A stretch of 57,961 nucleotides of DNA from Bacteroidaceae bacterium (lineage in GTDB: Bacteria; Bacteroidota; Bacteroidia; Bacteroidales; Bacteroidaceae). The DNA lies in contig JAFXGX010000046.1 of the NCBI GenBank assembly GCA_017536695.1, positions 1 to 57,961 of the forward strand, given 5' to 3'. How positions within the stretch are numbered: position 1 is the first letter of the stretch; every line of letters begins with the position of its first letter. Both the position numbers and the translations under genes were made by a program. Below are positions 13,998-44,580 of this stretch, one piece after another. The notes beneath the pieces were generated by a model that was not told the origin of the DNA, did not search any database, and saw only the letters and a program-made list of their open reading frames with translations.

Positions 13998-15956
13998 TTA
14001 ATTGGATTGTTCCGGGGTTTGGGGTAACTCCTCGACTTGCGGCATATCCTTCTGCTGAAGTTGTGAAAGCAGTTCGGGCGGAATGCCTTCCATTGCCTGC
14101 CCCTGCGCAGCCTGTTCCTCGTTGCGCTTGATAGCCTCAAGAATCTTGGTGGCGAAGGGATAGGAACTGTTTTCGAGCATTGTCTTGACATCAATGGCAT
14201 TGCTACGGAAAAGTTCCATAAGAAACTCATTTGCCACAAGCTGATAGGCAGGAGTGTTGTAACCGTCGGAAATTGTCAGGTCGAACTCGCTGTTCTGTAC
14301 CTTGTCGGGATTGTACCACTTGGCCTCTTCGCTGTAATGTGTACCCACGATGTCAATGTAATGTCTCTCGCCGTAGAACTGCTGAATTGTCTTCATTACC
14401 TTGCCGTCCCTACGACGGCGGAAGTTCCTGAAGCCGTCGAACAACCCTTTCAGGTTGAGCGATGAGTTCTGTATCTGCTGCGCATAGAGCGAAGCTGGTG
14501 TTCCCGCCTTGGGTGCCTGCCCCTGCATGGCCGAGTTGACACCGGAGATTTCGTTGATGAGCCTCAGCTGCAGATTGAGCAGTTCAAAGTCACCGGCAAC
14601 GGCTGCACCGCTGTTGTACTGACGCACTACACCGTCGATGCTCTGGCCCGGTTTCAGCTTGACAAAGAGCACACCGTTGTAACGTACATACTCATCGATT
14701 ACCTCTTCGCGAGACATGCTCTCGAAAGCCTCATCATCAACGACAAGCACACCTTTGGATGAGGTGCCTCGAATGAAGTCTATGAGCGTTGCCGTACGGT
14801 TTATGGCACGTTGCTGGTCAATGAACTGCTCCACGAAGTTACCGAGACGTCCTTGTATCAACGGGAAGAGATGCAACACATAATTGTGCTCGCCATGCCA
14901 ATAGGGGCTGCGCCCCTCCTGGAGCACATCGCCATAGGGTGTCATGTAGCGGTAGTACCAGTATCGTTCGGTGGCAAACTCATACTCCACAAGCAGCAGT
15001 TCATCTTCCTCCATTCCTTTCGCGGCACCCTCATCAATGCGACGACGGTTCTCGGCATCGAGCATCGCCTTGCTCTCATCATCATAAGGCAGATAGCCCC
15101 ATGTCCCGTTGCTGCTGTCATTCCAGCGGTAGGAGTCACGCGACTCGAGTTTCCAACCGAGGATTACACGACAGAGATTGGTGTGCGAGGGCGAATAGAA
15201 CGACATGTTCTTTGACTCTTCGCCCTGCATGGCCCTGCTGCCGGCAAAGACCGACTGAGAGACATTGCCGTATATATCCTTTATGCGTTGCTTCTTCTGC
15301 GGAGTTGTGCCAAAGTGGGCAAGGAGGTCCTCAAGCGGCAGGTCGAACAGTTCTCCAATGCAGGTAAGGTCCCACATACGAACATCCTCAATATTGGTAT
15401 TGAAGAAGAGACGCGACGGATTGACAGAATAGACCCACACGTCGCGACGTTCCTTGGAGGGGTTGACACCGTATTCTATCCTCTGTGCTGTCATACCGCC
15501 GTTGAGCAGCATGCGCATGCAGTCAGCATCGAGTTCCTCCATCTCATTGATGTCATGCACGTACTCAATGGCAACAGACATCATCTCGCCCAACTTGCTC
15601 TCGCTCTGGTCGCGGGCCACGCATACCGGGCGCATGAGGTTCTGACGCAGCTGACCGTCGATGTTGCCAAGGATGGGTGCAATCATATTGTTCTTGAGCG
15701 GAACCTTGCCGTTCTTCTTTATGAGTTCGCCCTCGGTTATCTGTGCAAGGGTATCGGGGTCTGTGACATAATCGCCCCACTGGTCGCCGTAGCTGTACAT
15801 GAGGCTACGGCGCAATTTGCGCCGTGCCTCGTCAAGAGCATTCCAGCAAGCAGCACACTCAGCGAGGAACTCCACCGCAGCGGCAGCGGTGCTGCCGGGA
15901 GAGTCTCTGCGACTTTTCTTATTTGCCTTTACCCTCTTATCTAAGAATTTGTTCAT
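13998..15956 (-). CDS. Phage portal protein
   Basis: A 652-aa protein of the size and pattern of P22-type portals: a basic N-terminus, then NNMIAPILGNIDGQLRQNLM, LLNGGMTAQRIEY, VNPSRLFFNTNIEDVRMWD, and a helical C-terminal tail rich in Gln. The portal would form the dodecameric DNA entry ring at one capsid vertex. It is the last gene of a minus-strand operon that starts at 22624 (small internal proteins, giant protein, portal). Base composition resembles neighbouring host genes rather than recent foreign DNA. The reading frame is intact. Its terminase and capsid partners lie 25 kb away, on the other side of the ATP synthase operon, which is unusual. Confidence 0.8.
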   Translation of the reverse strand: MNKFLDKRVKANKKSRRDSPGSTAAAAVEFLAECAACWNALDEARRKLRRSLMYSYGDQWGDYVTDPDTLAQITEGELIKKNGKVPLKNNMIAPILGNIDGQLRQNLMRPVCVARDQSESKLGEMMSVAIEYVHDINEMEELDADCMRMLLNGGMTAQRIEYGVNPSKERRDVWVYSVNPSRLFFNTNIEDVRMWDLTCIGELFDLPLEDLLAHFGTTPQKKQRIKDIYGNVSQSVFAGSRAMQGEESKNMSFYSPSHTNLCRVILGWKLESRDSYRWNDSSNGTWGYLPYDDESKAMLDAENRRRIDEGAAKGMEEDELLLVEYEFATERYWYYRYMTPYGDVLQEGRSPYWHGEHNYVLHLFPLIQGRLGNFVEQFIDQQRAINRTATLIDFIRGTSSKGVLVVDDEAFESMSREEVIDEYVRYNGVLFVKLKPGQSIDGVVRQYNSGAAVAGDFELLNLQLRLINEISGVNSAMQGQAPKAGTPASLYAQQIQNSSLNLKGLFDGFRNFRRRRDGKVMKTIQQFYGERHYIDIVGTHYSEEAKWYNPDKVQNSEFDLTISDGYNTPAYQLVANEFLMELFRSNAIDVKTMLENSSYPFATKILEAIKRNEEQAAQGQAMEGIPPELLSQLQQKDMPQVEELPQTPEQSN

Positions 15957-15973
15957 TGTAACATTTTATTTAG

Positions 15974-18900
15974 TTAGTTCATCTTGAGCCTTTTCTTTTC
16001 AAGTTCAAGCTCGCGTTTCTTTTCCTCTTTGGTCTTAGGCACCTTTATACCGTATTTCTCTTTTTCGGCCTTAATTTTGGCATCCCTGATGCGCTTGTAC
16101 TCCTCCCACCCTGTTGGGTCGCTTCGGATGGCCGGGTCAAACAGGCTGATGTCATGAAGCAATTTCGGGAACTCATATCTTAAGTAGGCTTTGTCATCGG
16201 CCTTGTCAAGACCGCTCTGCGGAGCCACACGTTCCTCATAGTCCTTCTTTGTCGCCACACGCAGCGGACCCTCGGCCTCTGCACCGCTTGCAGCATCAAT
16301 GATTATCTCCACAGGTCCCCAGAAGAAGCTGCGGTACTTCTTGATTTTGCTGTCGACAGCCTCATCAATCTCCTTCCTATACTCAGGATTATAACGTCCT
16401 CCTATGAAATGCCCCATGCTACGGGCAACCCTGTAAAGCAGATAGTCATCCATGTCGGGGAAGCGTCTCATGAACTCATCGGGCATGAAGCCAAACTCGC
16501 TGCGGTACATCTCGGCTATTCTGTTGTCAGCATCAAAACCTGGAATTTCTTCACGCATCTTGATAAGGTTACGGGCATAGGTAACCGCATCGCTATAACT
16601 TTTCTTGAAGTTTGAATTGAATTCATTCAGCTGACGTTTAACCGAGTTACGCCGTTCTTCAAAGTCACGCGCCACACTCCTAAGAGCACCATCGATGTAG
16701 AATCTTGACTGAGGATAGAGATATACTCTCCTGTCAAGGAGTATTCTGTTATTCTTCCTGTCGTACATCACGGGCATGGGCAGGTCCTTTTCAATACCGA
16801 CCGGCATCATCGCCAGTTCGGGATGTTCCATAAGGAAATCCTTATCGGTTACAATATCCTTCAGCACGAACCGTTCCACACCGCTCTCGGCCATTCCCAC
16901 AAGCGTGTTCCACAAGTCATGGTCATAGGCTTTCCAATCCTCGGGCGGCAGCCCACGCAGATGTTCATAGGCATAGGCATATGTGGGGGAGTTGGCTCTC
17001 AACGACCTGTAGAACGGGTCTTCGAGCAATGGTATTCCCGCTTCGGGGTCATGGGCCATACCACGCTCAAGCGCATCGCGCTCCAGGCTGCGGCGTTCTT
17101 CCTCACCACTTCCCTTGTAAATGTCATCGGGCAGACGGTAGCGAGTTTCTTTCCCTGTTAAGTCATCGGGCAAACGGTACTTCGTATCGCTACTTGGATA
17201 GTATTCCGGCAACGGTTCGCCATTCTCATCGAAATTTTTTAACACATTATATTTGGAGCCGGGCACTTCGCGTTGTATATTTGCAACATCTTCATGTGTA
17301 GCAAGTGAATAACGGCTTAGGTGTCCGCTGCTTCCTTGAAGTAGACCTCCGGATGATGAGTTGCCTGGGATCACACCGCTCCTCTCGCCGGAGGTTGTTT
17401 TTTCTTCATCGGGCAAACGGTACTTCGTATCGCTACTTGGATAATATTCCGGCAACGGTTCGCCATTCTCATCGAAATGTTTTAACACATTATATTTGGA
17501 GCCGGGCTCTTCGCGTTGTATATTTGCAACATGTTTTGGTTGTGCAAGTGGATAACGGCTTAGGTGCGCGCTGCCTCCCAAAATTAGACCTTCGGATGAT
17601 GGGCTGCCTGGAACCGCACCGCTCCTCTCGCCGGAGGTTGTTTTTTCTTCATCGGGCAAACGATAATGCAATTTACCATCATAGTAGTATGGGTATTGAT
17701 TCTTTTCCGCTTTCCCTGTATAATCAACAAACGTTCCATTTTCAATCAGATTCACAACACCATTGAGTATAGAATTTGCAGCATCGTTCAAAGACACTTT
17801 TACCGGGTCGTATATATACTCTATGTAACCATTATGCTCTCCTCTGCTTACATGCTCTCCGTTCTTATGGACAACAATGCTTATCTTGTCATCGGCTGGA
17901 TGGTTACCCATTCTATCCCCTGTTGCAGGATGAGTGGAAACACGCAAATGAAGCGTCTTTCCGTCAACGTCTATATCCCCTTCATACAAATCTCCATAAA
18001 ATGACTGAGAACTCTTTGACTTTCTTAAATTTAGGCTCTCGCCTAATTTCCGTACCGCATCTTCAGCCGTATATATATCATAAAAACCTCCTTCATTAAT
18101 TTTTTTTCTTGCAGAGAAGTAGGAATTATCGGTATTTTTCGCTATATTTGCAGCATCTTCTTGGGAAGTTAGCGCATAATGGCTTAGGTGTCCGTTGCTT
18201 ACTTGAAGTAGATCTCCGGATGATGAGTTGCCTGGAATCACACCGCTCCTCTCGCCGGAGGTTGTTTTTTCCCCTCTCCTGTACATGTTTTCCTCGACAG
18301 GGTTCTGCGCAGGCTCTTCTACAATGCCGTTACGTTCACGCACTCTCTTCTGCTGCTCAGGCGGCAAGAGGTCGTAGTGGGCAAGCTCTTTTGCGTTCCT
18401 GAAGAACTTGGGCGTTGAAACAAGGAATTCTCCTTCATCTATCTGAGATTTCAGTTCGTTCCTGTACAGGGCATTGTCATAGTAGGTCTTTGCGTCGCGG
18501 TAGGATGCATTGAAGCTGCCGAACACATCTTTCCTGTAGTCATCAGGAGACTCCTTTGTCTGCAGATACTCACAATGGCGCTGCATGATATCCCTCAGTT
18601 CCGATTCACTTATCTGACGGTTGCTTCCTGTGTAGATGTTCATTCTTATGAGCAGGCTCCTTATATAGTCCTTTATCCTTACATAAAGCGAACGCTCCTG
18701 TCTTGTAAGGCCAGTACCTTCGGCAAGATAGGCAAGATACTCCTCCATCACTGTGTAGTTATCGAAGCCCCGGTACTGGTACTTTATCCTGTTGATACCG
18801 CGCAGGACCTCGGGAGATGCCTTCCTGTATACATCCTCGAGGAAATCATTAAGATGCTCGCCAAAGACATGCATCAAGCCCTTATGACCCACGACTTCAT

Positions 18901-21637
18901 GAAGCACTGTCCTTTCCACATCCTCTATGTTCTTGGCGTTGGGAAGATTTATGAACACCCTGCCCACATTTACCCAGCCGCTTGAAACGACCTGCGCATT
19001 GTAGCGCGCCACAGCATCATAGTCTTCAGGGTCGGGACGCTCAATCTCACGCTCATCGAAGATAAAATGCGGCTTTACACCGAACTTGGCGGCAACCGCC
19101 TCGGCACGTTCCTTGTAGCGTTCAATATCCTCGCGGGTGTTCTTTGCCTCACCGTAGCTCCATACATAGCCGGAATTGTCTTCGGGCGGTATATATATGG
19201 GACGTGGAGGAGCCGGGGCATGGGGCTCCGAGTGCAGACCGACGCGGTCGGCATCGCGCACAGCCACCCAATCATAGTACTTCTGTATCTCATCGGCCTT
19301 GACCTCATCGTTAGACATGCCGAAATAGTCGCTGTCGAGTCCCTGCCTGAGCAGTCGTACCGAACGGCGCTTGTCTGTACCGCCCTTCAGGCGGTCGACC
19401 TCATCGCGCAACAATGCCTCATACTCATCGAGGGAGTTGTTCTGGGCCTTGGTCAAGTGAAAGAACGGCTTATGGATATCGATGAGCATGGTGCCTTTCT
19501 CAAGGCCATGACGTTTCTCAATTTTGCGGCGCACGTTAAAAAGCATCTGCACCATACCAGCCTCATCGTAGGCTGAGCGCACGAGAATATCATCGACAAT
19601 CTTCTTCTCTTCGGCACTCATCTCATGGCCCGCACTTTTCTTGTACACGGCTGTTGATATCTCCTCAATGTCCTTTCCGCTGCTCTTGGCATAGAGACCT
19701 GCCTGGCGTATGAAATTGGCCGAGCGCAGACCATCGGTCAGCTCTGCCTCAAAAAGAGCAATCCTGTTACGACGGAAATCGGCTGCCTTTACCATGAGAT
19801 AGCTTTTGGCATTGCCTGCGTGGTCAAAGATGTTGCGCGACACAGTCCTGCCAACCTCATCGACAGTCGTTATCTCCCACTTGCTGTCCTCCCTTTGCCT
19901 CACCGTAAAGTCAAATGGGACAGGCGGTGTGGATGTAACCTTGTTCTCGACAAGGAACAACAACTTGGCCCTTGCCGAAGCTGACAGCGCTTCGTTGGAC
20001 ATTATGCTGCTGTAGGTATCCTTTATATAACGCGACCTTTCGCCACCGAATGAGGGGAGTTTGAGCTCTTTCTCAATAGCATCGATGAACTGCTCAGGGT
20101 TGACATTAAGTTCCTTGAGTTCGGCCCGCTCGGAACTTGAAAGCGCGAACTTCTCCTTAATCTTGCCATTGGCTCCAAGTTTCAGCGACGCGCCTTTGGG
20201 ACGCCAGTGTGTCATCCTCATGACAAGTAGTGTTGCCGCGCTTTCGCCGAAATCCTTGACAAGGTCTATCGGCGCAATCTCGATATCGTTCTTCAGTTTC
20301 TCAAGCTCGGTACCGGCAGTGAAGACTGCCGACTCTGCAGAGAGGACACCCGATGAGGCGAGCACTTTCTTCGCACCGGTCAGTCCCTTGGATGCCTCGC
20401 GCAACGGTGTACCCACAACACCGAGCGCTGCACCGGTGAGCGTACCTTTGGCGAATGAACCGGCAGCCTTGCCTGCGTCGATATCGTTCTGATAGAGCAT
20501 GTCATCTACAATGCTGTTCATGGCATCGTAGTTACCCAGTGTCAGCCCCTGTGTACCCGCACTCTGCAGCATCTTGAATCCCAAGCGCTTGGCCACAACC
20601 CTTTCGGCCATATTCTTTGCAGCCTCGCGCGTCATCCCCTCACCAAATTTACGTGTAAGAATCCTGCCCGCGAGCTTGGAGGTAACTTTGTTTGCCACCT
20701 TACCCATGAGAATACCAGAGCCACCGCCCAGCAGCGAAAATACCGGAGCATCGACAAGCAACGAGCCCACATTGCCGGCAAACTGTTCAAGACGGCTGGC
20801 TTTGTAACTGCCAAGCCCTTCGCTCTGCAACATTGTCTGGTTACTATTGCCCAGCATTTTGTCTCTTGCAAAAAGAGCCACCTTACCGATAAGGGAGTTT
20901 GTCAGCGATGACCTGAGGATATACTCGGCACTGTTCTTGGGCCTCTCATCCTCTAATACCTCATCGAGAAGCGTGTCATACATCTTTGGCAATACACGTT
21001 CTTTTAGATACTCATCCACTCCATACCCGTTATACTTCGCCAATGGAGCTACACGCCTGGCAAGCTCGGCAACATCAGTCTCGGCAATGGTTTCCTCTAT
21101 ATCCTTTACGGCATCATCGGACTCCATGGCTCTGTAGGATGCGAACACAGGGTTACCGCCCATGACAGAGACCGCGTCCCTGTAGGCTTTCTCACTCCGT
21201 TTTTTCGACTCCTGACGCCGAGCTGCAAAACGTTGCTTCAGATTCTCGCCGAATGAGCCTCCAAGAGCCCTATCGAGTACATCCTTGTACTGATTCTGAG
21301 GCTCCGGTTCTTGAATGGGCACAGGAGCCATAACACCTGCACCTGTATCCGTGAAACCTTGGTTCGGTTTTCCTGCATTCGGGAACATGTTCCCAAGGAT
21401 TCTCCTTACACCGGAGATGTCGGCACTATCATTGTCCGATGGCTTCTTTGCGGAACCCGTGTATGCACCTTGGACAGCATCAGCTGTTCCTTCATAATAA
21501 CCGGTACTTTGCTTATGCGGTTTCTTCTCATCAAAGGCATTCTGCACATGATAATTCTGTTTCTCTTCATTGTCGGGAGTATACAATGGAGCCGCATAGG
21601 AAAGTTCCCCGCTGTCTTTTCTGTTGTACAAATTCAT
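15974..21637 (-). CDS. Giant polyvalent phage internal protein with zincin motif and repeats
   Basis: A 1,887-aa protein encoded between the small internal proteins and the portal. The N-terminal half is helical with hydrophobic glycine/alanine-rich stretches (about 280-470), as in ejected internal proteins. Near residue 911 there is a zincin motif, LHEVVGHKGL, with a downstream Glu-containing segment (VMEEYLAYLAEGTG), suggesting a metallopeptidase domain. Residues about 1110-1520 carry 81-aa repeats (KTTSGERSG, SKYNVLK, PLPEYYPSSDTKYRLPD) separated by a domain of about 150 aa. The C-terminus is highly charged (Lys/Glu). This layout matches the 'polyvalent protein' theme of phages, where one polypeptide entering the recipient cell carries several activities. 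Two small genes follow the same promoter upstream. The function of the individual domains is not established. Confidence 0.75.
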   Translation of the reverse strand: MNLYNRKDSGELSYAAPLYTPDNEEKQNYHVQNAFDEKKPHKQSTGYYEGTADAVQGAYTGSAKKPSDNDSADISGVRRILGNMFPNAGKPNQGFTDTGAGVMAPVPIQEPEPQNQYKDVLDRALGGSFGENLKQRFAARRQESKKRSEKAYRDAVSVMGGNPVFASYRAMESDDAVKDIEETIAETDVAELARRVAPLAKYNGYGVDEYLKERVLPKMYDTLLDEVLEDERPKNSAEYILRSSLTNSLIGKVALFARDKMLGNSNQTMLQSEGLGSYKASRLEQFAGNVGSLLVDAPVFSLLGGGSGILMGKVANKVTSKLAGRILTRKFGEGMTREAAKNMAERVVAKRLGFKMLQSAGTQGLTLGNYDAMNSIVDDMLYQNDIDAGKAAGSFAKGTLTGAALGVVGTPLREASKGLTGAKKVLASSGVLSAESAVFTAGTELEKLKNDIEIAPIDLVKDFGESAATLLVMRMTHWRPKGASLKLGANGKIKEKFALSSSERAELKELNVNPEQFIDAIEKELKLPSFGGERSRYIKDTYSSIMSNEALSASARAKLLFLVENKVTSTPPVPFDFTVRQREDSKWEITTVDEVGRTVSRNIFDHAGNAKSYLMVKAADFRRNRIALFEAELTDGLRSANFIRQAGLYAKSSGKDIEEISTAVYKKSAGHEMSAEEKKIVDDILVRSAYDEAGMVQMLFNVRRKIEKRHGLEKGTMLIDIHKPFFHLTKAQNNSLDEYEALLRDEVDRLKGGTDKRRSVRLLRQGLDSDYFGMSNDEVKADEIQKYYDWVAVRDADRVGLHSEPHAPAPPRPIYIPPEDNSGYVWSYGEAKNTREDIERYKERAEAVAAKFGVKPHFIFDEREIERPDPEDYDAVARYNAQVVSSGWVNVGRVFINLPNAKNIEDVERTVLHEVVGHKGLMHVFGEHLNDFLEDVYRKASPEVLRGINRIKYQYRGFDNYTVMEEYLAYLAEGTGLTRQERSLYVRIKDYIRSLLIRMNIYTGSNRQISESELRDIMQRHCEYLQTKESPDDYRKDVFGSFNASYRDAKTYYDNALYRNELKSQIDEGEFLVSTPKFFRNAKELAHYDLLPPEQQKRVRERNGIVEEPAQNPVEENMYRRGEKTTSGERSGVIPGNSSSGDLLQVSNGHLSHYALTSQEDAANIAKNTDNSYFSARKKINEGGFYDIYTAEDAVRKLGESLNLRKSKSSQSFYGDLYEGDIDVDGKTLHLRVSTHPATGDRMGNHPADDKISIVVHKNGEHVSRGEHNGYIEYIYDPVKVSLNDAANSILNGVVNLIENGTFVDYTGKAEKNQYPYYYDGKLHYRLPDEEKTTSGERSGAVPGSPSSEGLILGGSAHLSRYPLAQPKHVANIQREEPGSKYNVLKHFDENGEPLPEYYPSSDTKYRLPDEEKTTSGERSGVIPGNSSSGGLLQGSSGHLSRYSLATHEDVANIQREVPGSKYNVLKNFDENGEPLPEYYPSSDTKYRLPDDLTGKETRYRLPDDIYKGSGEEERRSLERDALERGMAHDPEAGIPLLEDPFYRSLRANSPTYAYAYEHLRGLPPEDWKAYDHDLWNTLVGMAESGVERFVLKDIVTDKDFLMEHPELAMMPVGIEKDLPMPVMYDRKNNRILLDRRVYLYPQSRFYIDGALRSVARDFEERRNSVKRQLNEFNSNFKKSYSDAVTYARNLIKMREEIPGFDADNRIAEMYRSEFGFMPDEFMRRFPDMDDYLLYRVARSMGHFIGGRYNPEYRKEIDEAVDSKIKKYRSFFWGPVEIIIDAASGAEAEGPLRVATKKDYEERVAPQSGLDKADDKAYLRYEFPKLLHDISLFDPAIRSDPTGWEEYKRIRDAKIKAEKEKYGIKVPKTKEEKKRELELEKKRLKMN
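17163..18271 (-). repeat. 243-bp in-frame repeat inside the giant protein gene
   Basis: Two full copies (17163-17405 and 17406-17648) have a period of exactly 243 bp (81 codons) and differ at a small number of positions. A third copy is split: its one end starts at 17649 and diverges within about 15 bp, and the other part lies at about 18165-18271, with an unrelated segment of about 500 bp between. This fits a tandem array into which a domain was inserted, or an array that grew around one. Confidence 0.85.
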
Positions 21638-22073: not shown

Positions 22074-22090
22074 ATGCCACACTCCCCGGG

Positions 22091-22638: not shown

Positions 22639-22686
22639 CAAAGGAAACTGCATAAATGCCGCAGAAGGTTGCTGAAATGACAATTT
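22639..22686 (-). promoter_or_regulatory. Shared late promoter, copy 1 (portal operon)
   Basis: On the minus strand the box TGTCATTTCAGCAACCT (ends at 22666) is followed by 19 nt and the -7 box TTCCTTTG (22646-22639). The ATG of the 177-aa gene is 15 nt further on. The same box, spacing and -7 type occur at three other sites in the phage-type blocks. Confidence 0.8.
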
Positions 22687-26589: not shown

Positions 26590-26604
26590 CTTGCAAAGTT
26601 TTGG

Positions 26605-36965: not shown

Positions 36966-37625
36966 TCATCTCCTTTCAACATTTTTTCCATTACACAACA
37001 ACGTGGCAAGCGAGAGCAAGGAGTTCGCCTGCTCACGACGTTCAAAGACATTGTACAACAGCGCGGCGCAGTAATATGCCACGGCGTCTGCGAGAAGAGG
37101 GTTGCATCCCTCAAGGCCATGAGCCGTGTCGAACGCGGCCTCATACACAAAATGGTCGAGCTGCGGAGCCTTGCCGCCGGGAAGCGGAGAGAGGAGCACC
37201 ACCCTTGAGCCATCATCGGCTACACTCTCCACACACAGCGGGCGGCATACCCCGGCACGCACATAACCACTGTTCTGCGCTATTGACTCGCAACACCCCT
37301 CGACAAGCAGCTGACGGCATGGACGTTTCCACCCCTTCAGCTGCAGCGATACAAGAGCGGCAAAGTCATCAGGCAATACAATCATCGCCTTTCCGTCATC
37401 ACGCACCACTATTTCAGCAGTACCCACATCAAGAGCACGAGGATTGACGTTACCGTAATCTGGTGCCTTGTTCTTCTGCACCAGAGCGACCGCTTGTGGC
37501 AGCAGCCTCAATATATGTCCGTTTATTGAGCGAGTCTCTTCGTAAAGCAACGAGAGACGGGCATCCTCCTCGGCCTCATTCAGCAGACGCCTTACCCGCT
37601 TGACAAGTTCATCGGTCGAAATCAT
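36966..37625 (-). CDS. Head completion / head-tail connector protein (P22 gp4-like)
   Basis: A 219-aa mostly helical protein (MISTDELVKRVRRLLNEAEED..., ending in a helix with LLADAVAYYCAALLYNVFERREQANSLL). This profile is typical of adaptor proteins that bind the portal after packaging. It overlaps the 142-aa gene by 4 nt and is followed by the 93-aa gene. Confidence 0.6.
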   Translation of the reverse strand: MISTDELVKRVRRLLNEAEEDARLSLLYEETRSINGHILRLLPQAVALVQKNKAPDYGNVNPRALDVGTAEIVVRDDGKAMIVLPDDFAALVSLQLKGWKRPCRQLLVEGCCESIAQNSGYVRAGVCRPLCVESVADDGSRVVLLSPLPGGKAPQLDHFVYEAAFDTAHGLEGCNPLLADAVAYYCAALLYNVFERREQANSLLSLATLLCNGKNVERR

Positions 37626-38050
37626 AGCCAGTTAGGGAAAGAGACGCCCTTGCTCTGAGCCATGCTCTTTACAGCATTCTTGTTCTGCAGTTCAGAGAGG
37701 GCGCAGTTATAAGGTGCAGCCATAAGATAGGCGCGCGCCTGTTGCATATTGGTAACCTCACTCACGACAGATAGGGCATCATTGCCGCCACCGTTTTTAT
37801 CTTTGGCTTCAGGCTCACTGTCGCCTATTATATCTACCCTACCGCGCTTTATCTCACCGCTGCGGAAAGCCTCGCTGTTCTCGATAGCACGCTGGAAAAG
37901 AGGGTTGTCGGTCGTATACTGCGCAGGATATACCCCTGTGGAGTTTATCGCACCGCCTGTGAATTCTATTCTCATGAGCGCCTTCCCTATCCTGAAGTAA
38001 CTGTTACGCTCTATCTGTCCATGAATCTCGTAAGTAATTCTTTTTTTCAT
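37622..38050 (-). CDS. Phage-type virion protein downstream of the capsid gene
   Basis: A 142-aa protein with an N-terminal beta domain (YFRIGKALMRIEFTGG), an Asp/Gly-rich linker, and a C-terminal helical tail (NMQQARAYLMAAPYNC, NKNAVKSMAQSKGVSFPNWL) resembling a small HeH/LEM-like module. This pairing is familiar from Bacteroides prophage head genes. It may be a decoration or head-fibre protein. Confidence 0.6.
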   Translation of the reverse strand: MKKRITYEIHGQIERNSYFRIGKALMRIEFTGGAINSTGVYPAQYTTDNPLFQRAIENSEAFRSGEIKRGRVDIIGDSEPEAKDKNGGGNDALSVVSEVTNMQQARAYLMAAPYNCALSELQNKNAVKSMAQSKGVSFPNWL

Positions 38051-38168: not shown

Positions 38169-39788
38169 TCAGATGAGAATCTCGCCTGTATATTCAACCC
38201 ATGTACTGCCGTTGAATGTAACCACGCTGCCCGCAGCAAACCATAGTTTCTGCTCGCCGTTGACAGTATGATTGACATCGGCTGTAAGCACTACCACATC
38301 GTTGATATTCGGTGACGCAGGCAATACAGCAGCACTTGTCACATGCGAAGCACCTGGAATGTCGCTCTCGGCAGCCGAGCCGTTTACCCAGATATGCGAG
38401 TAGCCCTTGAGACAGAGACAGTCGATTGTCATGACAACCTCGCGCTTTGCCTCCTCGCCGTCTACATTCTCGGTCTTTGCGTCCTCGTTCTTCATGTAGT
38501 AACGCACAAGGCCGTTCTCGTCAATGAGACCGCCGCAATGGGCATATCCGAGAGCATCGAGAGTCGGGTCGTGAATGAGGTCAATGTCTCCGAAGACAGT
38601 GTGAATCTTTGTACACTCGATGCCGAAGACCTTATCGCCGGTCATGCTGATGTTCTTGTGCAAGGTAAGGTCAATCTTCTGGATATCATTAAGCAGGTTC
38701 TTACCCAACAGCCAGATAGCCCTCTTGGTGCAATTGAACCCGGTGAACTTCACCATCGAGAGGTTAATCAAATCAGCAAAAGTAATCTTTGACGAGAGGT
38801 CATACTGACGTTTGAACTGCCAACGGATACCCTTTGAGAAGTAATCCCACTGATATCCCATAGCATTATCCATGGCCTGAACCTTGAACTTGCCAGGCTG
38901 ACCGACCCACGCCGTGCGGCAGCTCTCGAGACGGAACTGGCGAAGCACAGCCTCGGCAATCTGCGACTCACTGAACGGTATACGTTTCTTCTGTGCTGCG
39001 AAATAGTCGCTCACGATGCTGTTGCAGAGCTGTTTCTGCAGGTACATACGCTCAGGCACAGGCACAATTGTTGAGGGAGCGATGAACTTCTGTGTCTCAT
39101 ACGCAGCCGAAGAGAGAAGGATAATCTCGGTGCCTGCGGGGATTGTAGGTACCACGCAATAGTCATCGCTCGAGTTTACCTTCGGGCCATTGACCGCCAT
39201 TGCGATAGGAGCCTCGGTAGTACTGTTCTTGCCAACGAAGAAGAGCATGAGGTCAACACCCGGCAGCTCAACCTGCCCCGATGCGTCATAACCGTTTACA
39301 CCCTTACAGATTGCAGTGTAATACTCCTGGAAGATTTTTCTCTCGCCTGTGGTTGAGAAAGGAATCTCGGCACGTGTAGCACTGATGCCGGTGTATGTCT
39401 CATTGGTATATGCCTTAGAGCGCTTGTCATCAATGAGATAATGGTCGACCTCGAAAGAGCTCACACGCACCTGACGGCGTATCTTGCGTTTGATGGTATC
39501 GATGATGCTCTCATCGCTTGCGATGCCTATTATCTGGTCATCGACATCGGCATCAATCAAATCACTGCCGAGCTCACGCGCATTGGAGACGGTAGTAGCC
39601 TCGCCGGCTCCCTGTGTGGCAAGACCACCGATACCCTTGGATGCCTTAGGAGTGCCACCGGGTACCACATTGACAGCAGCAAGCATCATGCCCGCAACCT
39701 GGTCACAGAAGAAATAGAACGCCAGAGCTGCCAGCGAAACAATCACGAACAGAGGGTTCTCCCTCATAAAAGAAATGATTTTTCTCAT
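38169..39788 (-). CDS. Major capsid protein
   Basis: A 539-aa protein. It starts with a hydrophobic stretch (ENPLFVIVSLAALAFYFFC), then GEATTVSNARELGSDLID and IRRQVRVSSFEVDHYLID, a combination I associate with capsid proteins of Bacteroides phages. The size and its place right after a scaffold-like gene and before head-completion genes support the call. HK97 fold is assumed but not shown. The unusual N-terminal hydrophobic segment may be removed during maturation or target the scaffold. Reading frame intact. Confidence 0.75.
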   Translation of the reverse strand: MRKIISFMRENPLFVIVSLAALAFYFFCDQVAGMMLAAVNVVPGGTPKASKGIGGLATQGAGEATTVSNARELGSDLIDADVDDQIIGIASDESIIDTIKRKIRRQVRVSSFEVDHYLIDDKRSKAYTNETYTGISATRAEIPFSTTGERKIFQEYYTAICKGVNGYDASGQVELPGVDLMLFFVGKNSTTEAPIAMAVNGPKVNSSDDYCVVPTIPAGTEIILLSSAAYETQKFIAPSTIVPVPERMYLQKQLCNSIVSDYFAAQKKRIPFSESQIAEAVLRQFRLESCRTAWVGQPGKFKVQAMDNAMGYQWDYFSKGIRWQFKRQYDLSSKITFADLINLSMVKFTGFNCTKRAIWLLGKNLLNDIQKIDLTLHKNISMTGDKVFGIECTKIHTVFGDIDLIHDPTLDALGYAHCGGLIDENGLVRYYMKNEDAKTENVDGEEAKREVVMTIDCLCLKGYSHIWVNGSAAESDIPGASHVTSAAVLPASPNINDVVVLTADVNHTVNGEQKLWFAAGSVVTFNGSTWVEYTGEILI

Positions 39789-39826: not shown

Positions 39827-40612
39827 TTATGCGTTCAACGCCTTGTCGATGAGGGAGTTGCGCCTGCGTTTGGGTGCAGCTACAGGAGCCACGCTCGACA
39901 GACCCTTTGGCAGACCATCGCCGAACTCCTCCTTCATGCGCATGATGTTGGTGTTGCGTCCCTTGATATCACCGGCGGCAAAGGCATCCTCAACATCCTT
40001 CTCATAGGTAAGCGCATGGTCAAGCGCAGTGCAAACGTCACCTGTGTACTTTCCCGCCATTATCGGGAAGATGATTTTCTCCCACACATTGTCCATGAAT
40101 TCCGACGGCTCATACCCGCGTTCGCGGCAGAAAGCCTCAATTACAGGCTGGCTCTCGCGGAGATTAGCCTCATACTCCTCGCGGTCATTCGACATACGGG
40201 CATTCTCAAGCTGCAGTTCCTCATCGGCACGCAGCATATCCTGGTACTCGGGCGAGTTCTCATCAAGTTCAACCAACGAACGTCCGAAGTAACGCGCCAC
40301 CGCGCTGCTTGCATTTCTCTTTCCGTTAATCATGTCAAGCAGCATCTGGGCAAGACGCGGGTCACTATCGAGGACCTCGGTCAGGAGTTCGTTCTGCTTT
40401 TTAGTCTGGAAGAGATAGTGTAACAGCATATCCTGCGACATGCGGTCATCAATGGAGAAGTCATCTCCGAAGATTTTCTTCAGTCCCATGCTCAGATAAG
40501 CGTAAGGAGTTTCAGCCACATCCTGCTGGCCGGCAACAGGCATCCCTTCATTCACGGGCGCACCTTCATAAGGTGCAGCCTCATTTTTCAAGTTCATTAA
40601 ATTCTGTTCCAT
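39827..40612 (-). CDS. Scaffold-like protein, first gene of the capsid operon
   Basis: A 261-aa acidic, mainly helical protein with a Gln/Met/Pro-rich N-terminus and a basic C-terminal tail (APKRRRNSLIDKALNA), the outline of capsid scaffolds whose basic end binds the capsid protein. It directly precedes the capsid gene. The -7 box of a shared late promoter ends 22 nt before its ATG. Confidence 0.65.
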   Translation of the reverse strand: MEQNLMNLKNEAAPYEGAPVNEGMPVAGQQDVAETPYAYLSMGLKKIFGDDFSIDDRMSQDMLLHYLFQTKKQNELLTEVLDSDPRLAQMLLDMINGKRNASSAVARYFGRSLVELDENSPEYQDMLRADEELQLENARMSNDREEYEANLRESQPVIEAFCRERGYEPSEFMDNVWEKIIFPIMAGKYTGDVCTALDHALTYEKDVEDAFAAGDIKGRNTNIMRMKEEFGDGLPKGLSSVAPVAAPKRRRNSLIDKALNA

Positions 40613-40633: not shown

Positions 40634-40680
40634 CAAAGGAACAACCGAATTTGCCCGACAAGGTTGCTGAAATGACATTT
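40634..40680 (-). promoter_or_regulatory. Shared late promoter, copy 3 (capsid operon)
   Basis: On the minus strand AAATGTCATTTCAGCAACCT (40680-40661) is followed by 19 nt and TTCCTTTG (40641-40634). The 17-nt box and -7 box are identical to those of copy 1 before the portal operon 18 kb away. Confidence 0.85.
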
Positions 40681-40839: not shown

Positions 40840-40891
40840 AAATGTTAAAACAGCATACTTTCAGCTTTTTTTGGCTATATTTTTGTAGCCA
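40840..40891 (+). promoter_or_regulatory. Promoter of the 40908 gene with repressor operator O2
   Basis: TGGCTA (40872-40877), TATTTTTG (40878-40885) and TAGCCA (40886-40891) form a perfect 6-bp inverted repeat around a -7 box, as at 32131. Upstream, AAATGTTAAAACAGCATACT (40840-40859) matches the late box at about 15 of 20 positions and is 18 nt from the -7 box. So the site may be repressed by the S24 repressor and perhaps weakly autoactivated. Confidence 0.75.
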
Positions 40892-40907
40892 CAAAAGCAG
40901 GAACATT

Positions 40908-41348
40908 ATGGGAAACACTATCAAGAATTCTGTCCGCGACATACGCAGACATGACGTTGTCAACAGCTTTTTTGGCTCACTGAAAGAGTTAAGGAAGACA
41001 AGACCTTTCGTCTCACAGAGTGAAGTAATCGAGCATGCATCAAAAAGCAGTGCACCGAGATTCTATGTGACCTTCGAGAATGCAAGGCGCTTTGTATCGC
41101 TTCTTATGCGCAAGAAAGAGCTCCCTATCACAAACAAGAACAAGATCGAGATGTACAAGGAGATATACCGCCGCTACCGCAAACAGGTACAGGGGTGCGA
41201 CTCGCGTTACAAATACCTCATCCTTGAAGACATCATTGAGGAGCCGGCACCTTCTTTCTACATCGATGAGGAGACCTTCAGAGGGATTGTCTACAGAGCC
41301 TTGCGCAACAACGGCAACAAGGACGACACGCACAGGGCTATGGCATGA
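40908..41348 (+). CDS. Candidate late-gene regulator (two PxFYv-type repeats)
   Basis: A 146-aa basic protein. It contains two related segments, APRFYVTFENARRFVSLLM and APSFYIDEETFRGIVYRAL, about 60 aa apart, suggesting an internal duplication. I have seen similar proteins near phage terminase genes but know no function. The ATG at 40908 is fixed by the operator-promoter just upstream. Because it is the one gene in block 2 with the repressor-type promoter right before the late promoters, I propose it as the activator of those promoters; small terminase is an alternative. It has its own terminators downstream. Confidence 0.6.
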   Translation: MGNTIKNSVRDIRRHDVVNSFFGSLKELRKTRPFVSQSEVIEHASKSSAPRFYVTFENARRFVSLLMRKKELPITNKNKIEMYKEIYRRYRKQVQGCDSRYKYLILEDIIEEPAPSFYIDEETFRGIVYRALRNNGNKDDTHRAMA

Positions 41349-41502: not shown

Positions 41503-41549
41503 AAATGTCAATTCAGCAACCTCATGGCATAATCATGCATCTATCTTTG
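41503..41549 (+). promoter_or_regulatory. Shared late promoter, copy 4 (terminase operon)
   Basis: AAATGTCAATTCAGCAACCT (41503-41522), 19 nt, then TATCTTTG (41542-41549), 13 nt before the ATG at 41563. Same box, spacing and -7 type as the other three copies. Confidence 0.85.
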
Positions 41550-41562: not shown

Positions 41563-42069
41563 ATGAAAGAGGTTATAATCACTATCAACGGGGGCGACAT
41601 TGCCGACCGCATATTTTCGGAAAGCGCATATGCAGCCCTTGCACGTGCAAAGAGCGGCCTGCCGGAGCGCTTTACAGACATAGTCCAGGCAACAGAGGAT
41701 GACCGCAACCTGATTGAGAGATTCATCATTGAGAGTGTAAATGAAGTTGCGGGTATAATAAGCCGTTACATGTCATCATGTTCAATAACATACATGCAGA
41801 CAGAAGAGAACACTGGAGGAACGATATACATACGGTTTACAATTCCGCAGAATTGCCCCGACAGCATGGCTACATCATTAAAGGAGAGCATTACAAGCTT
41901 CGCGGCAGCACGCAGCCTTCAGCACTGGATGCTGACGGTGAAACCCGATGAGGCGAACATTCATATGTCAAAGGCGCAGAACGACATTGCACGCATCCGT
42001 GAACTGCTCTCTTTGCGCACGCGCCCTGTCATGGGAACCGCAGAAGATGAAAACATTATAGAGCTATAA
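41563..42069 (+). CDS. Phage-type neck/tail completion-like protein A
   Basis: A 168-aa protein that appears related to the next gene product: both have a middle block of about 100 aa ending in a W-h-L stretch (QHWMLTVKPDEANIHMSKAQND here, MHWLLLRQPQMAQANLSLRNAL there). Such pairs occur near terminase genes in Bacteroides prophages. The role is probably structural. First gene of the terminase operon. Confidence 0.6.
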   Translation: MKEVIITINGGDIADRIFSESAYAALARAKSGLPERFTDIVQATEDDRNLIERFIIESVNEVAGIISRYMSSCSITYMQTEENTGGTIYIRFTIPQNCPDSMATSLKESITSFAAARSLQHWMLTVKPDEANIHMSKAQNDIARIRELLSLRTRPVMGTAEDENIIEL

Positions 42070-42091: not shown

Positions 42092-42568
42092 ATGAAAAAC
42101 ACTATACTGATAAGGTGGAACGAACTGCAACAGCAGATTGATTTAAGGAACTATTACATGGGAGAGTCGGCCAAGCGTAAGGATATCGACGCCGACACCA
42201 TACAAAGCAGCAAGGATGAGAAAGAACTGCTCCTTATGTTTGCCGCACAGGCTGCTAACGGGCTGGTTACTGCTGTTGCTCTTCGTTTCCCTTATATTTC
42301 ATGCGAGATTGAAGATGAGTATATATCATTCATCTTTGAGGAGAGCTGTAGCAGCCGCAGCCATATGCTGCCCATGCTGCGTCAGGCGATAACCGACTAT
42401 CTTGTGAACGAGATTACCATGCATTGGCTGCTGTTGCGCCAGCCACAAATGGCACAGGCAAACCTTTCATTGAGGAATGCACTCTACAGCAACGTACAGC
42501 AGCTGTTCGCAAAGTTCTATAACAGCAGGAAGGTACGGCGCCGCCCAACCGACCTTGCAGGAATATAA
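42092..42568 (+). CDS. Phage-type neck/tail completion-like protein B
   Basis: A 158-aa protein, apparently a diverged paralogue of the preceding 168-aa protein, with a basic C-terminus (NSRKVRRRPTDLAGI). It lies 22 nt after the first and 11 nt before the terminase gene. No named family. Confidence 0.6.
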   Translation: MKNTILIRWNELQQQIDLRNYYMGESAKRKDIDADTIQSSKDEKELLLMFAAQAANGLVTAVALRFPYISCEIEDEYISFIFEESCSSRSHMLPMLRQAITDYLVNEITMHWLLLRQPQMAQANLSLRNALYSNVQQLFAKFYNSRKVRRRPTDLAGI

Positions 42569-42579
42569 GAAGTACAACA

Positions 42580-44580
42580 ATGGAAAAAGAAGACATCATC
42601 AAGGAGAATATACGACGGCTGGGAGAAATCTCAGCCGTTTACAATCCTGTCACAGGAGAAGGCTCGACATCCGTCGTGCGGCGGTGGGCTACGTTCGAAG
42701 GGTTTCCTGTCGAGAGAATAAACCTGCCCGCAACGATGCTCTCCGATGAACAGGTACAACAACTCTCATCCATGGGTGCCAGACGGTACCTTACCGACGT
42801 CATGCATACCGAGGCAAGTGACCGTAACATCATAAGGCTGTGGCTCGAGTTCTGCCTCAAGCGCATACGCCACGACTTCGAATACTGGGCACGCACGATG
42901 ACAACCATTGCCGACAAGGGCAAGGGACGCGATACGGCATTCACTCTCAACCGTCCGCAGCGCATATACCTGAAGGCAATGGAGCAGCTCCGCACAGAAG
43001 AGAAACCTATCGACATCATACTGCTAAAGGCACGACAATGGGGAGGCAGCACACTCACGCAACTCTACATGCTATGGATTCAGCTGGTACACAAACGCAA
43101 CTGGAACAGCGTCATCTGCGGTGACATCGAGAAACAGTCATCCATTGTAGCAGGAATGCTTGCCAAAGTCATCACACGCTACCCCACATGGGCGACAGGT
43201 GGTAAACGCCTTGTAACATCACCCTATCAGGGCGCACAGAAGACAAGAGTGATAAGCAGGAGCAACAGCCGTTACTCGCTCGGTTCGGCACAGAAACCCG
43301 ACTCATTGAGAAGCGAAGATATAAGCATGGCCCACCTTACCGAGGTAGGATTGTGGAAAGCGACACAAGGGCGCAAACCCGAGGACTTGGTACAATCAAT
43401 CTTCGGTTCCATAGCAAGCGGACCATACACGATGAAGGTAATTGAATCTACAGCAAAAGGCGTCGGCAATTTCTTTCACAGGACATGGATTGACGCCGTT
43501 GAGTTGCGAAATAATTTTACACCGGTATTCATTCCATGGTTTACGATAGACCTCTACAGCAAGCCACTCAGCCAAGCCGATTACGGCTCAATCATAGAGA
43601 GCATGAATGAGTATGAGCAGCACCTCTTTTCGTTGGGAGCGACACTTGAGGCCATTGCGTGGTACCGTGACAAGCGACGCGAGATGCCCGATGAATGGCG
43701 TCTGTTCAGCGAGTTCCCCTCTACACCCGAAGAGGCGTTCCAAAGTACAGGGCGGCGGGTATTCAAGATATCATACGTGAACAGCATGCGCAAGAACTGC
43801 GTGCCGCCGCCGTTCATCGGCGACATTGTCTGCAACGAGGGAGAGAGCGGAGCAAAAGGCAAATGCGAATTTGTTGCCGCGGCAGCAGGGGAAAAGGAGG
43901 AGAACAGCCTCAGTGTATGGCTTATGCCCGACAAAGAGAACCTCTTGCGTGACAGATACATAGTGACAGTGGATGTCGGCGGCACAGGCAACAAGGCGGA
44001 CTATTCATGTATTGTCGTTGCCGACAGGATTGCCATGCTCGACGGAGGGGTTCCGGAGATTGCCGCATGCTGGCATGGGCACATAGAGCATGACAAGCTT
44101 GCATGGAAAGCGGTAGAGATTGCACGCGCCTACGGCAATGCGTTGCTTGTCATCGAGTCGAACACATTGGAGACCGAAGGTACCGAGGGGAACAATTTCG
44201 AGTATATACTTAACGAAATTGCAGGCCGTTACAGCAACCTCTACTGCCGCACATCGCAACTTGAGATAAGACAAGGCAGGCCGAGACGTTGGGGATTCCA
44301 CACCAACAGTTCAACGAAACCCATGGTAATCAACTTCCTTATCAAAGCACTGCGCGATGACCTTTACATCGAAAGATGTTTACAGACAACATATGAGCTT
44401 GACCTGTATGAGTTCAAGGAAAACGGCAAGGAGATGGGTGCCATTGAGGGCAACCACGATGACCGCGTCATGGCGACAGCCATACTTGTATGGACCTGCT
44501 ACAACCACCCGCTGCCGACAAAGCCGACAGCCCACACTGGCAACAGGAGGAACAGGATTATAAGCGAAGCGAGCATATAA
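42580..44580 (+). CDS. Large terminase subunit (packaging ATPase/nuclease)
   Basis: A 666-aa DNA-packaging motor. The ATPase part has the Walker A-like motif KARQWGGST (150-158) and a Walker B region around DISMAHLTEV (Glu255 as catalytic residue). The RNase H-like nuclease has the expected acids: Asp465 (VTVDVGGTG), Glu526 (LLVIESN) and Asp627/628 (GNHDDRVMA). All are intact, which argues against decay. It follows two small paralogues under a shared late promoter, and base composition resembles host genes. The portal it must dock to is encoded at 13998-15956. Confidence 0.9.
   Translation: MEKEDIIKENIRRLGEISAVYNPVTGEGSTSVVRRWATFEGFPVERINLPATMLSDEQVQQLSSMGARRYLTDVMHTEASDRNIIRLWLEFCLKRIRHDFEYWARTMTTIADKGKGRDTAFTLNRPQRIYLKAMEQLRTEEKPIDIILLKARQWGGSTLTQLYMLWIQLVHKRNWNSVICGDIEKQSSIVAGMLAKVITRYPTWATGGKRLVTSPYQGAQKTRVISRSNSRYSLGSAQKPDSLRSEDISMAHLTEVGLWKATQGRKPEDLVQSIFGSIASGPYTMKVIESTAKGVGNFFHRTWIDAVELRNNFTPVFIPWFTIDLYSKPLSQADYGSIIESMNEYEQHLFSLGATLEAIAWYRDKRREMPDEWRLFSEFPSTPEEAFQSTGRRVFKISYVNSMRKNCVPPPFIGDIVCNEGESGAKGKCEFVAAAAGEKEENSLSVWLMPDKENLLRDRYIVTVDVGGTGNKADYSCIVVADRIAMLDGGVPEIAACWHGHIEHDKLAWKAVEIARAYGNALLVIESNTLETEGTEGNNFEYILNEIAGRYSNLYCRTSQLEIRQGRPRRWGFHTNSSTKPMVINFLIKALRDDLYIERCLQTTYELDLYEFKENGKEMGAIEGNHDDRVMATAILVWTCYNHPLPTKPTAHTGNRRNRIISEASI

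What the first reader, a model, noticed from the sequence alone, without database searches (positions are those of the whole stretch)
13998..44580. Dispersed, intact phage particle gene set without integration or replication genes: candidate gene-transfer-agent-like system
Seen: portal, large terminase with all ATPase and nuclease residues, scaffold, capsid protein, head completion proteins, nozzle, internal proteins, holin and spanin, all with open frames, in two blocks separated by about 8 kb of host genes. No integrase, transposase, replication gene or att repeat bounding the whole set was found. Known: gene transfer agents such as RcGTA keep head, tail, packaging and lysis genes, lose integration and replication genes, and may be spread over several loci under host control. 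Inference: the locus may encode a domesticated particle that packages host DNA. To my knowledge no such agent is described for Bacteroidota. Alternative: a split, decaying prophage.
Basis: partly seen in the sequence, partly recalled or inferred. Interest (0 to 1): 0.9.

Follow-up and report, generated by a model that had tools for sequence, protein, structure and literature searches.

The report
Domesticated phage particle in ruminant Bacteroidales
A group of gut bacteria from ruminants appears to have turned an ancient virus into its own scattered, apparently jointly controlled set of particle genes, probably used to pass pieces of bacterial DNA between cells; our literature searches found no such system described for this bacterial phylum.

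Summary
The window encodes a short-tailed-phage particle set (portal, TerL, scaffold, capsid, adaptor, nozzle, holin, spanin-like, internal proteins) plus an S24 repressor, split by the ATP synthase operon. Of 44 held genomes of the genus, 42 carry this type of TerL, 42 the capsid, 42 the nozzle and 41 the portal. All 11 genomes at least 90% complete and at most 5% contaminated carry all four; rpoB was matched in 32 of 44. In the window's closest relative dN/dS is 0.012 (capsid), 0.020 (portal), 0.061 (TerL). Particle trees largely follow rpoB, with exceptions. Both blocks span 20 to 111 kb on one contig (10 genomes) or lie on different contigs (29). Viral contigs found are at most 64% identical.

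New here: one bipartite promoter element precedes the separated operons (four copies in the window, 0.15 expected). It co-varies between blocks, was not found in 12 phage/prophage loci, and led to a DUF5675 gene elsewhere. A separate TerL clade of dispersed particle genes exists in eight other Bacteroidales genera. DNA packaging and transfer are not shown; a PBSX-like killer particle is the main rival.

The parts
13998..15956 (-). portal protein (block B)
   Evidence: PF16510 E 1.6e-36, PHROG portal 4.3e-58; 41 of 44 genus genomes
15974..21637 (-). large internal/polyvalent-type protein next to portal (block B), HEVVGH motif at residue 913; role inferred
   Evidence: phrog_14770 E 2.5e-14, the family also hit by the large ORF beside the portal of prophage G008:C6; HExxGH in 31 of 39 genus copies; fast evolving
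21651..22082 (-). small internal (ejection-like) protein, role inferred
   Evidence: found in 26 of 44 genus genomes in fetched regions
22091..22624 (-). small internal (ejection-like) protein, first gene of the block B operon; role inferred
   Evidence: 37 of 44 genomes in fetched regions; homologues beside TerL in other genera
22639..22682 (-). shared promoter element, block B operon
22706..22749 (+). shared promoter element, divergent 79-aa gene
22767..23006 (+). 79-aa conserved protein, unknown (packaging or regulatory factor is a guess)
   Evidence: tblastn in 37 genus genomes, 59-92% identity where listed, no hit at E 1e-3 in the phage loci held
23086..30151 (-). F1Fo ATP synthase operon (host) between the two blocks
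31406..32068 (-). S24/LexA-CI-like repressor beside the particle genes
   Evidence: PF00717 E 6.7e-13; Ala-Gly site, Ser and Lys 18 of 18 complete copies
33002..35854 (-). tail nozzle-like protein, 950 aa
   Evidence: phrog_32516 5e-47 (unknown function) and weaker virion families; 42 of 44 genomes, some only in part; beta-rich model
35847..36236 (-). spanin-like protein
   Evidence: lipobox and C-terminal hydrophobic stretch read from sequence; 21 of 34 by script
36208..36690 (-). holin
   Evidence: PF05105 above cut-off
36966..37625 (-). head-tail adaptor-like
   Evidence: phrog_22135 2.1e-8, unknown function; SU10_adaptor E 0.0049, below cut-off
37622..38050 (-). head-completion/decoration candidate following the capsid; role inferred
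   Evidence: position after the capsid in phages and genus
38169..39788 (-). major capsid protein
   Evidence: phrog_26635 1.9e-21, unknown function; its homologue lies in the head cluster of phages; 42 of 44 genomes at 78-100%
39827..40612 (-). scaffold
   Evidence: phrog_22323 3.8e-14, unknown function; position before the capsid
40634..40677 (-). shared promoter element, scaffold-capsid operon
40842..41348 (+). small-terminase candidate (directly upstream of TerL in relatives), role inferred from position
   Evidence: helical model pLDDT 83.5, no PDB match at E 0.001
41506..41549 (+). shared promoter element, TerL operon
41563..42069 (+). conserved particle-operon protein
   Evidence: phrog_19255 2.6e-10; homologues in Bacteroides phages
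42092..42568 (+). paralogue-like partner of 41563
   Evidence: (weak)
42580..44580 (+). terminase large subunit
   Evidence: PHROG terminase 5.4e-21; TerL profile matches T4 gp17; 42 of 44 genomes

Best explanation
A domesticated, short-tailed-phage-derived particle system, most likely a gene transfer agent (GTA) of this Bacteroidales genus. Shown by sequence: a set of intact head, packaging, portal/nozzle, holin and internal genes is inherited mainly vertically through the genus under purifying selection, in two or three blocks among host genes; no viral contig above 64% identity was found; and a common promoter element sits before the separated operons. Inferred: the host keeps the set off through an S24 (LexA/CI-type) repressor and switches the operons on together through a factor that reads the shared element. 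Heads are then filled by the intact terminase with host DNA; where the blocks lie farther apart than a related phage genome is long, the packaged DNA cannot be the whole gene set. Holin, spanin and perhaps a DUF5675 protein encoded elsewhere release the particles by lysis of a few cells, and the portal/nozzle with the internal proteins deliver the DNA into relatives.
For: Presence and intactness; rpoB as a yardstick matched in 32 of 44. Selection; TerL residues 39 of 39, last Asp pair 38 of 38. Co-diversification: Mantel r 0.75 with rpoB, 0 of 2000 permutations; 10 of 21 splits shared against 0.27 by chance, 24 genomes. Dispersal: spans of 20.2 to 110.9 kb in 10 genomes, different contigs in 29 of 39; nozzle at a third place in 5 genomes. 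No viral contig above 64% identity found. Shared promoter: 4 sites in the window, 0 of 100 shuffles reach 4; a matrix trained on block A finds block B in 34 of 37; 99 sites in 1.61 Mb, 94 assigned by script to particle operons; within-genome A-B similarity above all 5000 permutations; 0 sites in 12 phage/prophage loci, two of which are the same prophage. Same element before DUF5675 genes elsewhere.
Against: No experiment: no particle, packaged DNA or transfer is shown. Exceptions: a TGA inside TerL in G017, probably the one row that lacks the last nuclease Asp pair; a short scaffold ORF as called in G004; a deletion in the G029 nozzle; an insertion in the G010 portal. Seven well-supported particle splits, several with G009, are absent from the rpoB tree, and two well-supported rpoB splits are absent from the particle tree. 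In the window's own genome the set spans only 30.6 kb and would fit a 64-68 kb phage head. Genomes are fragmented MAGs, so 'different contigs' is weak evidence of distance. The pattern counted was written after the sites had been seen. No endolysin was identified in the window's genome. Nozzle and large internal protein evolve fast, as they also would in an infectious phage.
Confidence: 0.76

Rival explanations
1. A domesticated PBSX-like killer particle: it packages host DNA but kills related strains instead of transferring genes.
For: The same gene set, vertical inheritance and lysis genes would be expected; nozzle, spanin-like and large internal protein are among the faster-evolving genes, as target-facing parts of a weapon might be.
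Against: Internal/ejection-like proteins are kept and capsid and portal are the most constrained; neither decides the matter.
Confidence: 0.13
2. A domesticated phage used to deliver a protein (the large polyvalent-type protein, HExxGH motif in most copies) into other cells, DNA being incidental.
For: The large protein lies next to the portal in 40 of the 41 genomes with a portal; HExxGH in 31 of 39 complete copies.
Against: TerL motor and nuclease residues are kept; large proteins of the same kind are ordinary in related phages.
Confidence: 0.05
3. A split, decaying prophage.
For: Split by host genes in the window; a few broken or shortened copies.
Against: Complete ORFs in 39 to 41 of 44 genomes for portal, TerL and capsid, dN/dS far below 1, shared promoters on the separated blocks. 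Prophage-like copies in the same genus (G008:C6, G015:C128) keep portal, TerL, scaffold and capsid in one stretch, and G008:C6 carries an antirepressor.
Confidence: 0.03
4. A mobile capsid-coding satellite (cf-PICI-like) or a recurrent prophage that spreads horizontally through the genus.
For: G009 and some inner nodes conflict with rpoB.
Against: Shared host neighbours in many species, no integrase family in the window proteins scanned, trees largely congruent, no close viral contig found.
Confidence: 0.03

Closest known systems
RcGTA and relatives (Rhodogtaviriformidae, Alphaproteobacteria)
   Same: Vertically inherited phage-derived particle genes, often at several loci, host-exapted (definition read in PMC9662315; other RcGTA details recalled)
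   Different: Different phylum and, by TerL, nearest relatives among Bacteroidales phages; P22-type portal with nozzle; shared promoter element and S24 repressor instead of the recalled CtrA/GafA control; RcGTA sequences were not compared here
BaGTA, BhGTA/VSH-1, Dd1 and other GTAs
   Same: Independent domestications of tailed phages (PMC9662315, passages and section 3)
   Different: No Bacteroidota member is named in the parts read (the word Bacteroidetes has 0 occurrences); sequences not compared here
Bacteroides temperate phages BF1-TP2, BKO1-TP3, BS-TP4 (64-68 kb)
   Same: TerL about 40% identical in all three and a distant capsid; in BF1-TP2 and BKO1-TP3 also portal, adaptor, nozzle and 40842 homologues, scaffold in BKO1-TP3, holin in BF1-TP2
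   Different: One phage genome; deposited annotation names replication initiation, methylases and endolysin in both records read, Erf and RusA in BF1-TP2; no shared promoter element in the stretches held
Unnamed IMG/VR phages (for example IMGVR_UViG_3300016722_000158, 61.7 kb) and prophage G008:C6
   Same: Nearest relatives: TerL 59-61%, capsid 61-64% (IMG/VR) and 73-75% (G008:C6)
   Different: Portal and TerL within one stretch of about 16 kb or less in the loci held, adjacent in most; G008:C6 carries an antirepressor
PBSX-type defective phages
   Same: Could package host DNA (recalled)
   Different: No homology tested

Membership tests
GTA (definition of Kogay et al. 2022, PMC9662315, section 3 read in full) | Caudoviricete-derived particle proteins | tested here: met
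   Portal, TerL, holin and virion families; solved relatives of portal and TerL
GTA (definition of Kogay et al. 2022, PMC9662315, section 3 read in full) | Mostly random host DNA in particles | not testable with these tools
   Needs purified particles
GTA (definition of Kogay et al. 2022, PMC9662315, section 3 read in full) | Fully endogenized, often at several loci | tested here: met
   Two blocks, three in 5 genomes, among host genes
GTA (definition of Kogay et al. 2022, PMC9662315, section 3 read in full) | Own genome cannot be fully packaged | tested here: inconclusive
   If heads are like those of the 64-68 kb relatives it holds for G002 (110.9 kb span, nozzle on another contig) and G062 (blocks at least 72 kb apart from contig lengths); the 30.6 kb span of the window's genome would fit; real head size unknown
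GTA (definition of Kogay et al. 2022, PMC9662315, section 3 read in full) | Vertical inheritance and co-diversification | tested here: met
   (24 genomes), with G009 and some inner splits in conflict; 11 genus rows one clade in the TerL tree
GTA (definition of Kogay et al. 2022, PMC9662315, section 3 read in full) | Delivery of the DNA to other cells | not testable with these tools
   Needs a transfer assay
Active or recent prophage | One continuous element with integration/replication genes and sporadic distribution | tested here: not met
   Genus-type TerL in 42 of 44 species, portal detached from TerL, host genes between; no integrase among the window proteins scanned
Active or recent prophage | Flanking att repeats | not tested
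   No repeat search was run
RcGTA-like family (Rhodogtaviriformidae) | Homologous TerL/capsid clade | not tested
   RcGTA sequences were not put in the tree

The most novel reading that the evidence does not exclude
Domesticated DNA-packaging particles are a widespread and repeatedly evolved trait of Bacteroidales. One arose in the window's genus from a phage close to the 61.7-kb IMG/VR type. A second, older one exists in at least eight other genera of seven families, where TerL, portal/nozzle and scaffold-capsid lie in separate recurring blocks up to hundreds of kb apart. Each carries its own shared promoter element that ties the scattered operons into one regulon.
Probability: 0.5. Interest if true: 0.96.

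Novelty: new variant of a known kind. Interest (0 to 1): 0.9.

Why it matters
Gene exchange in gut Bacteroidota is usually put down to conjugation and phages (general knowledge). A fixed, apparently co-regulated, phage-derived particle in all 11 good genomes of a ruminant-gut genus, with a second, separate lineage in other families, would add a host-controlled route of DNA exchange in a dominant gut phylum. It would also give a new independent case for why bacteria keep GTAs, and the shared promoter motif gives a direct handle on regulation and on missing components. It makes a testable prediction: nuclease-protected particle DNA from ruminant faeces should hold these genomes evenly, not as a prophage peak.

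Tried and rejected
Decaying prophage: rejected on genus-wide intactness, selection and shared promoters. Recent prophage in many hosts: rejected because viral contigs found are at most 64% identical while genus copies of TerL, portal and capsid are 73-100%. Small-terminase identity of 40842-41348: the structure model found no PDB match, so it rests on position alone. Nozzle fold comparison could not be run (server busy). The promoter pattern had the spacing one base too short (19 N instead of 20), so its genome-wide list is incomplete and mixes particle sites with matches of unknown standing (reversed-pattern control: 5 matches); it did not return the window's own four sites. Shared elements in the second clade rest on a word (TATCGCA, 10 of 40 regions; shuffled mean 0.7, largest 3; 4 on the opposite strand) chosen after looking, and are a lead only. 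Not done: att-repeat search, HMM scan of every ORF, dN/dS for the second clade, RcGTA sequences in the TerL tree, a search for the S24 gene or the DUF5675 gene away from the fetched regions.
Full report
WHAT IS IN THE WINDOW. The window is the whole 57,961-base contig C19 of a 2.63 Mb genome in 109 contigs, 97% complete. Block B, 13998-22624 (minus strand): two small internal proteins, a 1887-aa protein and a P22-type portal. Then the host F1Fo ATP synthase operon, 23086-30151, a host-like secreted protein and an S24 repressor (31406-32068). Block A, 33002-44580: nozzle, spanin-like, holin, adaptor, capsid and scaffold on the minus strand; a small-terminase candidate, two related small proteins and TerL on the plus strand.

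GENUS-WIDE PRESENCE. All 44 held genomes of the genus were searched. TerL is found in 43 of 44, portal in 41 of 44, capsid in 43 of 44 and nozzle in 42 of 44 (a few only in part). For TerL and capsid one genome (G015) has only a divergent copy in a prophage-like stretch, so the genus type is in 42 of 44. In the 11 genomes at least 90% complete and at most 5% contaminated each gene is found in 11 of 11. As a yardstick, rpoB is matched in 32 of 44 and in 9 of those 11, so the misses look like assembly gaps. Complete ORFs in fetched regions: capsid 41, TerL 39, portal 39, nozzle 29 of 44 (the nozzle's third locus in 5 genomes was not fetched). Exceptions: a TGA in the TerL of G017, a short scaffold ORF in G004, an insertion in the G010 portal, a deletion in the G029 nozzle. 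Three genomes of two other genera of the family lack capsid, portal and TerL. Named records of the genus type are MAGs called Bacteroidaceae or Bacteroidales bacterium; where the title names a source it is a ruminant (goat, sheep, deer, yak, cattle, water buffalo).

SELECTION AND DESCENT. In the window's closest relative (G000-G019, NG86) dN/dS is capsid 0.012, portal 0.020, holin 0.031, scaffold 0.036, 42092 0.052, TerL 0.061, 22091 0.065, adaptor 0.067, 40842 0.092, nozzle 0.128, large internal protein 0.166, 37622 0.174, spanin-like 0.232, 41563 0.249; S24 0.053; hosts for scale: atpA 0.050, murB 0.137. In the more distant pairs dS is often saturated or undefined and the values are only indicative; the highest there was 0.469 (41563, G004-G025). 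TerL residues K150-T158, E255, D465, D474 and E526 are identical in 39 of 39, and D627/D628 in 38 of 38, one row (probably the TGA-cut G017 copy) lacking them. Trees of 24 genomes: rpoB against TerL+capsid+portal, Mantel r 0.75 (capsid alone 0.84, portal 0.68, TerL 0.51), each with 0 of 2000 permutations as high; 10 of 21 splits shared against 0.27 by chance; TerL (block A) against portal (block B), r 0.65 and 14 of 21 splits. Seven particle splits with support of 95 or more are absent from the rpoB tree, three of them with G009, and two rpoB splits of 90 or more are absent from the particle tree. Vertical descent is the main but not the only signal.

DISPERSAL. In 10 genomes both blocks are on one contig, with portal-to-TerL spans of 20.2 (G018), 21.8, 27.9, 29.7, 30.1, 30.2, 30.6 (window), 31.5, 43.4 and 110.9 kb (G002); in 29 they are on different contigs. 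Contig breaks can explain some of these, but in G062 the contig lengths put the blocks at least 72 kb apart. In G030 and G018 the blocks are adjacent, with only the repressor region between them; in G030 the set is flanked by murB and an MBL-fold gene on the TerL side and by ligA-dapA on the portal side. In G002, G024, G028, G065 and G011 the nozzle sits at a third place. In most related phage and prophage loci held the portal lies beside TerL and the scaffold-capsid-adaptor row follows; exceptions include L241, L273 and the prophage G008:C6, where portal and TerL are 4 to 8 kb apart. The detached portal is thus most likely a derived trait of the genus.

ORIGIN. Best matches in the viral collection: capsid 64%, TerL 61%, portal 59%. 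Named free relatives are the Bacteroides temperate phages BF1-TP2, BKO1-TP3 and BS-TP4 (TerL about 40%); the two read carry annotated replication, methylase and endolysin genes. In the TerL tree (58 rows, quick method) the 11 genus rows are one clade (99) next to IMG/VR phages and prophage G008:C6. The G008:C6 copy (TerL 60%, capsid 75%) has an antirepressor and a tail-fibre-like protein, so prophages of this family coexist in the genus and look different.

ONE REGULON. Upstream regions of the scaffold operon and the block B operon are alike in the same genome: 25 of 36 genomes score above every shuffle. The same comparison with ten other upstream regions gives 0 of 21 (S24), 6 of 39 (40842, which shares the intergenic region), 1 of 22, 0 of 19, 0 of 38, 1 of 32, 3 of 40, 0 of 17, 1 of 41 and 0 of 13. 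A weight matrix built on block A (40 of 41 regions; its seed was the element first noticed in the window, so the window's own B site is not independent) finds block B sites above the 99% shuffle level in 34 of 37; controls: 1 of 21, 0 of 24, 0 of 21, 0 of 41, 0 of 42, 0 of 40, 2 of 33, 0 of 19, 0 of 19, 0 of 7, 0 of 14. In the window GCAACC-N23-YTTYG has exactly four matches (mean 0.15 in shuffles, 0 of 100 reach four): before block B, before a divergent 79-aa gene, before the scaffold operon and before the TerL operon; the pattern was written after these sites had been seen. Over 1.61 Mb of genus sequence, all of it fetched around the particle genes, there are 99 sites in 38 genomes, 91 with exactly this spacing: scaffold 33, 22091 23, 41563/TerL 17, 79-aa gene 17, 40842 4, five unlabelled, of which three lie before particle genes by position; none in 30 shuffled loci (roughly 0.47 Mb); none in 12 phage or prophage loci, two of them stretches of one prophage. 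The element differs between clades, and the A and B copies of one genome resemble each other more than copies from different genomes (14.97 against 13.64 of 19, 0 of 5000 permutations, 35 genomes), though few independent events may underlie this. This argues for one trans-acting factor. One search, whose pattern was one base off in spacing, still turned up the element before DUF5675 genes (PF18925; E 6.9e-16 and 4.4e-10) at separate loci in G031 (spacing 23) and G064 (spacing 22). Near-identical site DNA occurs in G036 and G004, whose downstream genes were not read. A lysis role for DUF5675 is inference.

REPRESSOR. The S24 protein keeps its Ala-Gly site, Ser and Lys in 18 of 18 complete copies, which suggests control by self-cleavage on DNA damage (inference; the site's meaning is recalled). 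It was found in 21 of 44 genomes, but only regions around the blocks were looked at, so its linkage is seen in these, beside block A or B, and not tested genome-wide. Its own upstream region lacks the shared element (1 of 21).

A SECOND CLADE. In 295 Bacteroidales genomes, the window's included, the capsid matches 22, in 11 of 184 genera. Of 24 genomes then searched for portal and TerL (the 21 other capsid-positive ones and 3 same-family ones), 21 have both and the 3 same-family ones neither. In many of them capsid, TerL and portal are far apart: in the one-contig genome G335 at 1.395, 1.427 and 1.149 Mb; in G057 on three contigs; in G278 TerL is 0.95 Mb from capsid and portal. In the 11 genomes read, blocks recur: 22091-homologue with TerL, portal with nozzle, scaffold-capsid-adaptor. 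In the genus of G335 the portal is in 9 of 9 genomes. Stops inside the portal match are reported for G111, G280, G340 and the second copy of G178. Eleven TerLs of these genomes (eight genera, seven families) form one side of a branch (support 90, below the star level; G278 is a long branch) apart from the window's genus, which points to a separate, older domestication. G178 also carries a contiguous prophage-like copy.

LITERATURE. Searches: 'gene transfer agent' with Bacteroidetes (25 of 74 papers listed), with Bacteroidota (9 of 9), with Bacteroidales (13 of 13), 'domesticated prophage' with Bacteroidales (none), a GTA domestication search (2), GTA with ruminant and Bacteroidetes (5), 'GTA-like' with Barnesiella (none). 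No listed title or abstract start describes a GTA of Bacteroidota; apart from two papers only listings were seen. PMC12946183 (abstract and passages) reports GTA-like packaging in Oscillospiraceae/Ruminococcaceae and lateral transduction in Bacteroides. PMC9662315 (passages and section 3) gives the GTA definition used here. The library holds open-licence papers only and no preprints.

VERDICT. Domestication of a particle set under joint control is very likely (about 0.95). That it is a GTA in function is likely (about 0.76) but rests on analogy until packaged DNA and transfer are shown.

Noticed in passing
window 49500-57961: A low-G+C stretch (0.33-0.39 in most 2-kb windows against about 0.50) with an AAA+ ATPase, a small GTPase-like protein and unknown genes; perhaps a defence or mobile island.
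   Followed up: no
window 5154-7577: DUF4062 plus AAA-like (STAND-like) protein beside housekeeping genes; possible defence gene.
   Followed up: no
L360, L361, L327 (G335) and L362, L363, L332 (G302): Dispersed single-copy TerL, portal and scaffold-capsid blocks in one-contig genomes of other Bacteroidales families (with a nozzle beside the portal in G302), one TerL clade apart from the window's genus.
   Followed up: partly
L371/L372 (G103), L332/L362/L363 (G302), L335/L373/L374 (G178): A different shared upstream element (TATCGCA) before dispersed particle blocks of the second clade, 10 of 40 regions, chosen after looking.
   Followed up: partly
L410 118-651 and L400 335-946: DUF5675 genes preceded by the genus's particle promoter element; candidate lysis genes.
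   Followed up: partly
L376/L377 (G278), L379/L378 (G068), L210: Family f26 genomes (G278, G068) and a Muribaculum contig (L210) with a shorter portal (459-498 aa) beside or near the capsid; TerL is about 0.95 Mb away in G278, on another contig in G068, and was not found in the stretch held for L210. Maybe another lineage of the same kind.
   Followed up: no
L115/L174 (G008:C6), L118 (G015:C128): Contiguous prophage-like relatives (TerL 60% and 44%) in the same genus as the dispersed system.
   Followed up: partly
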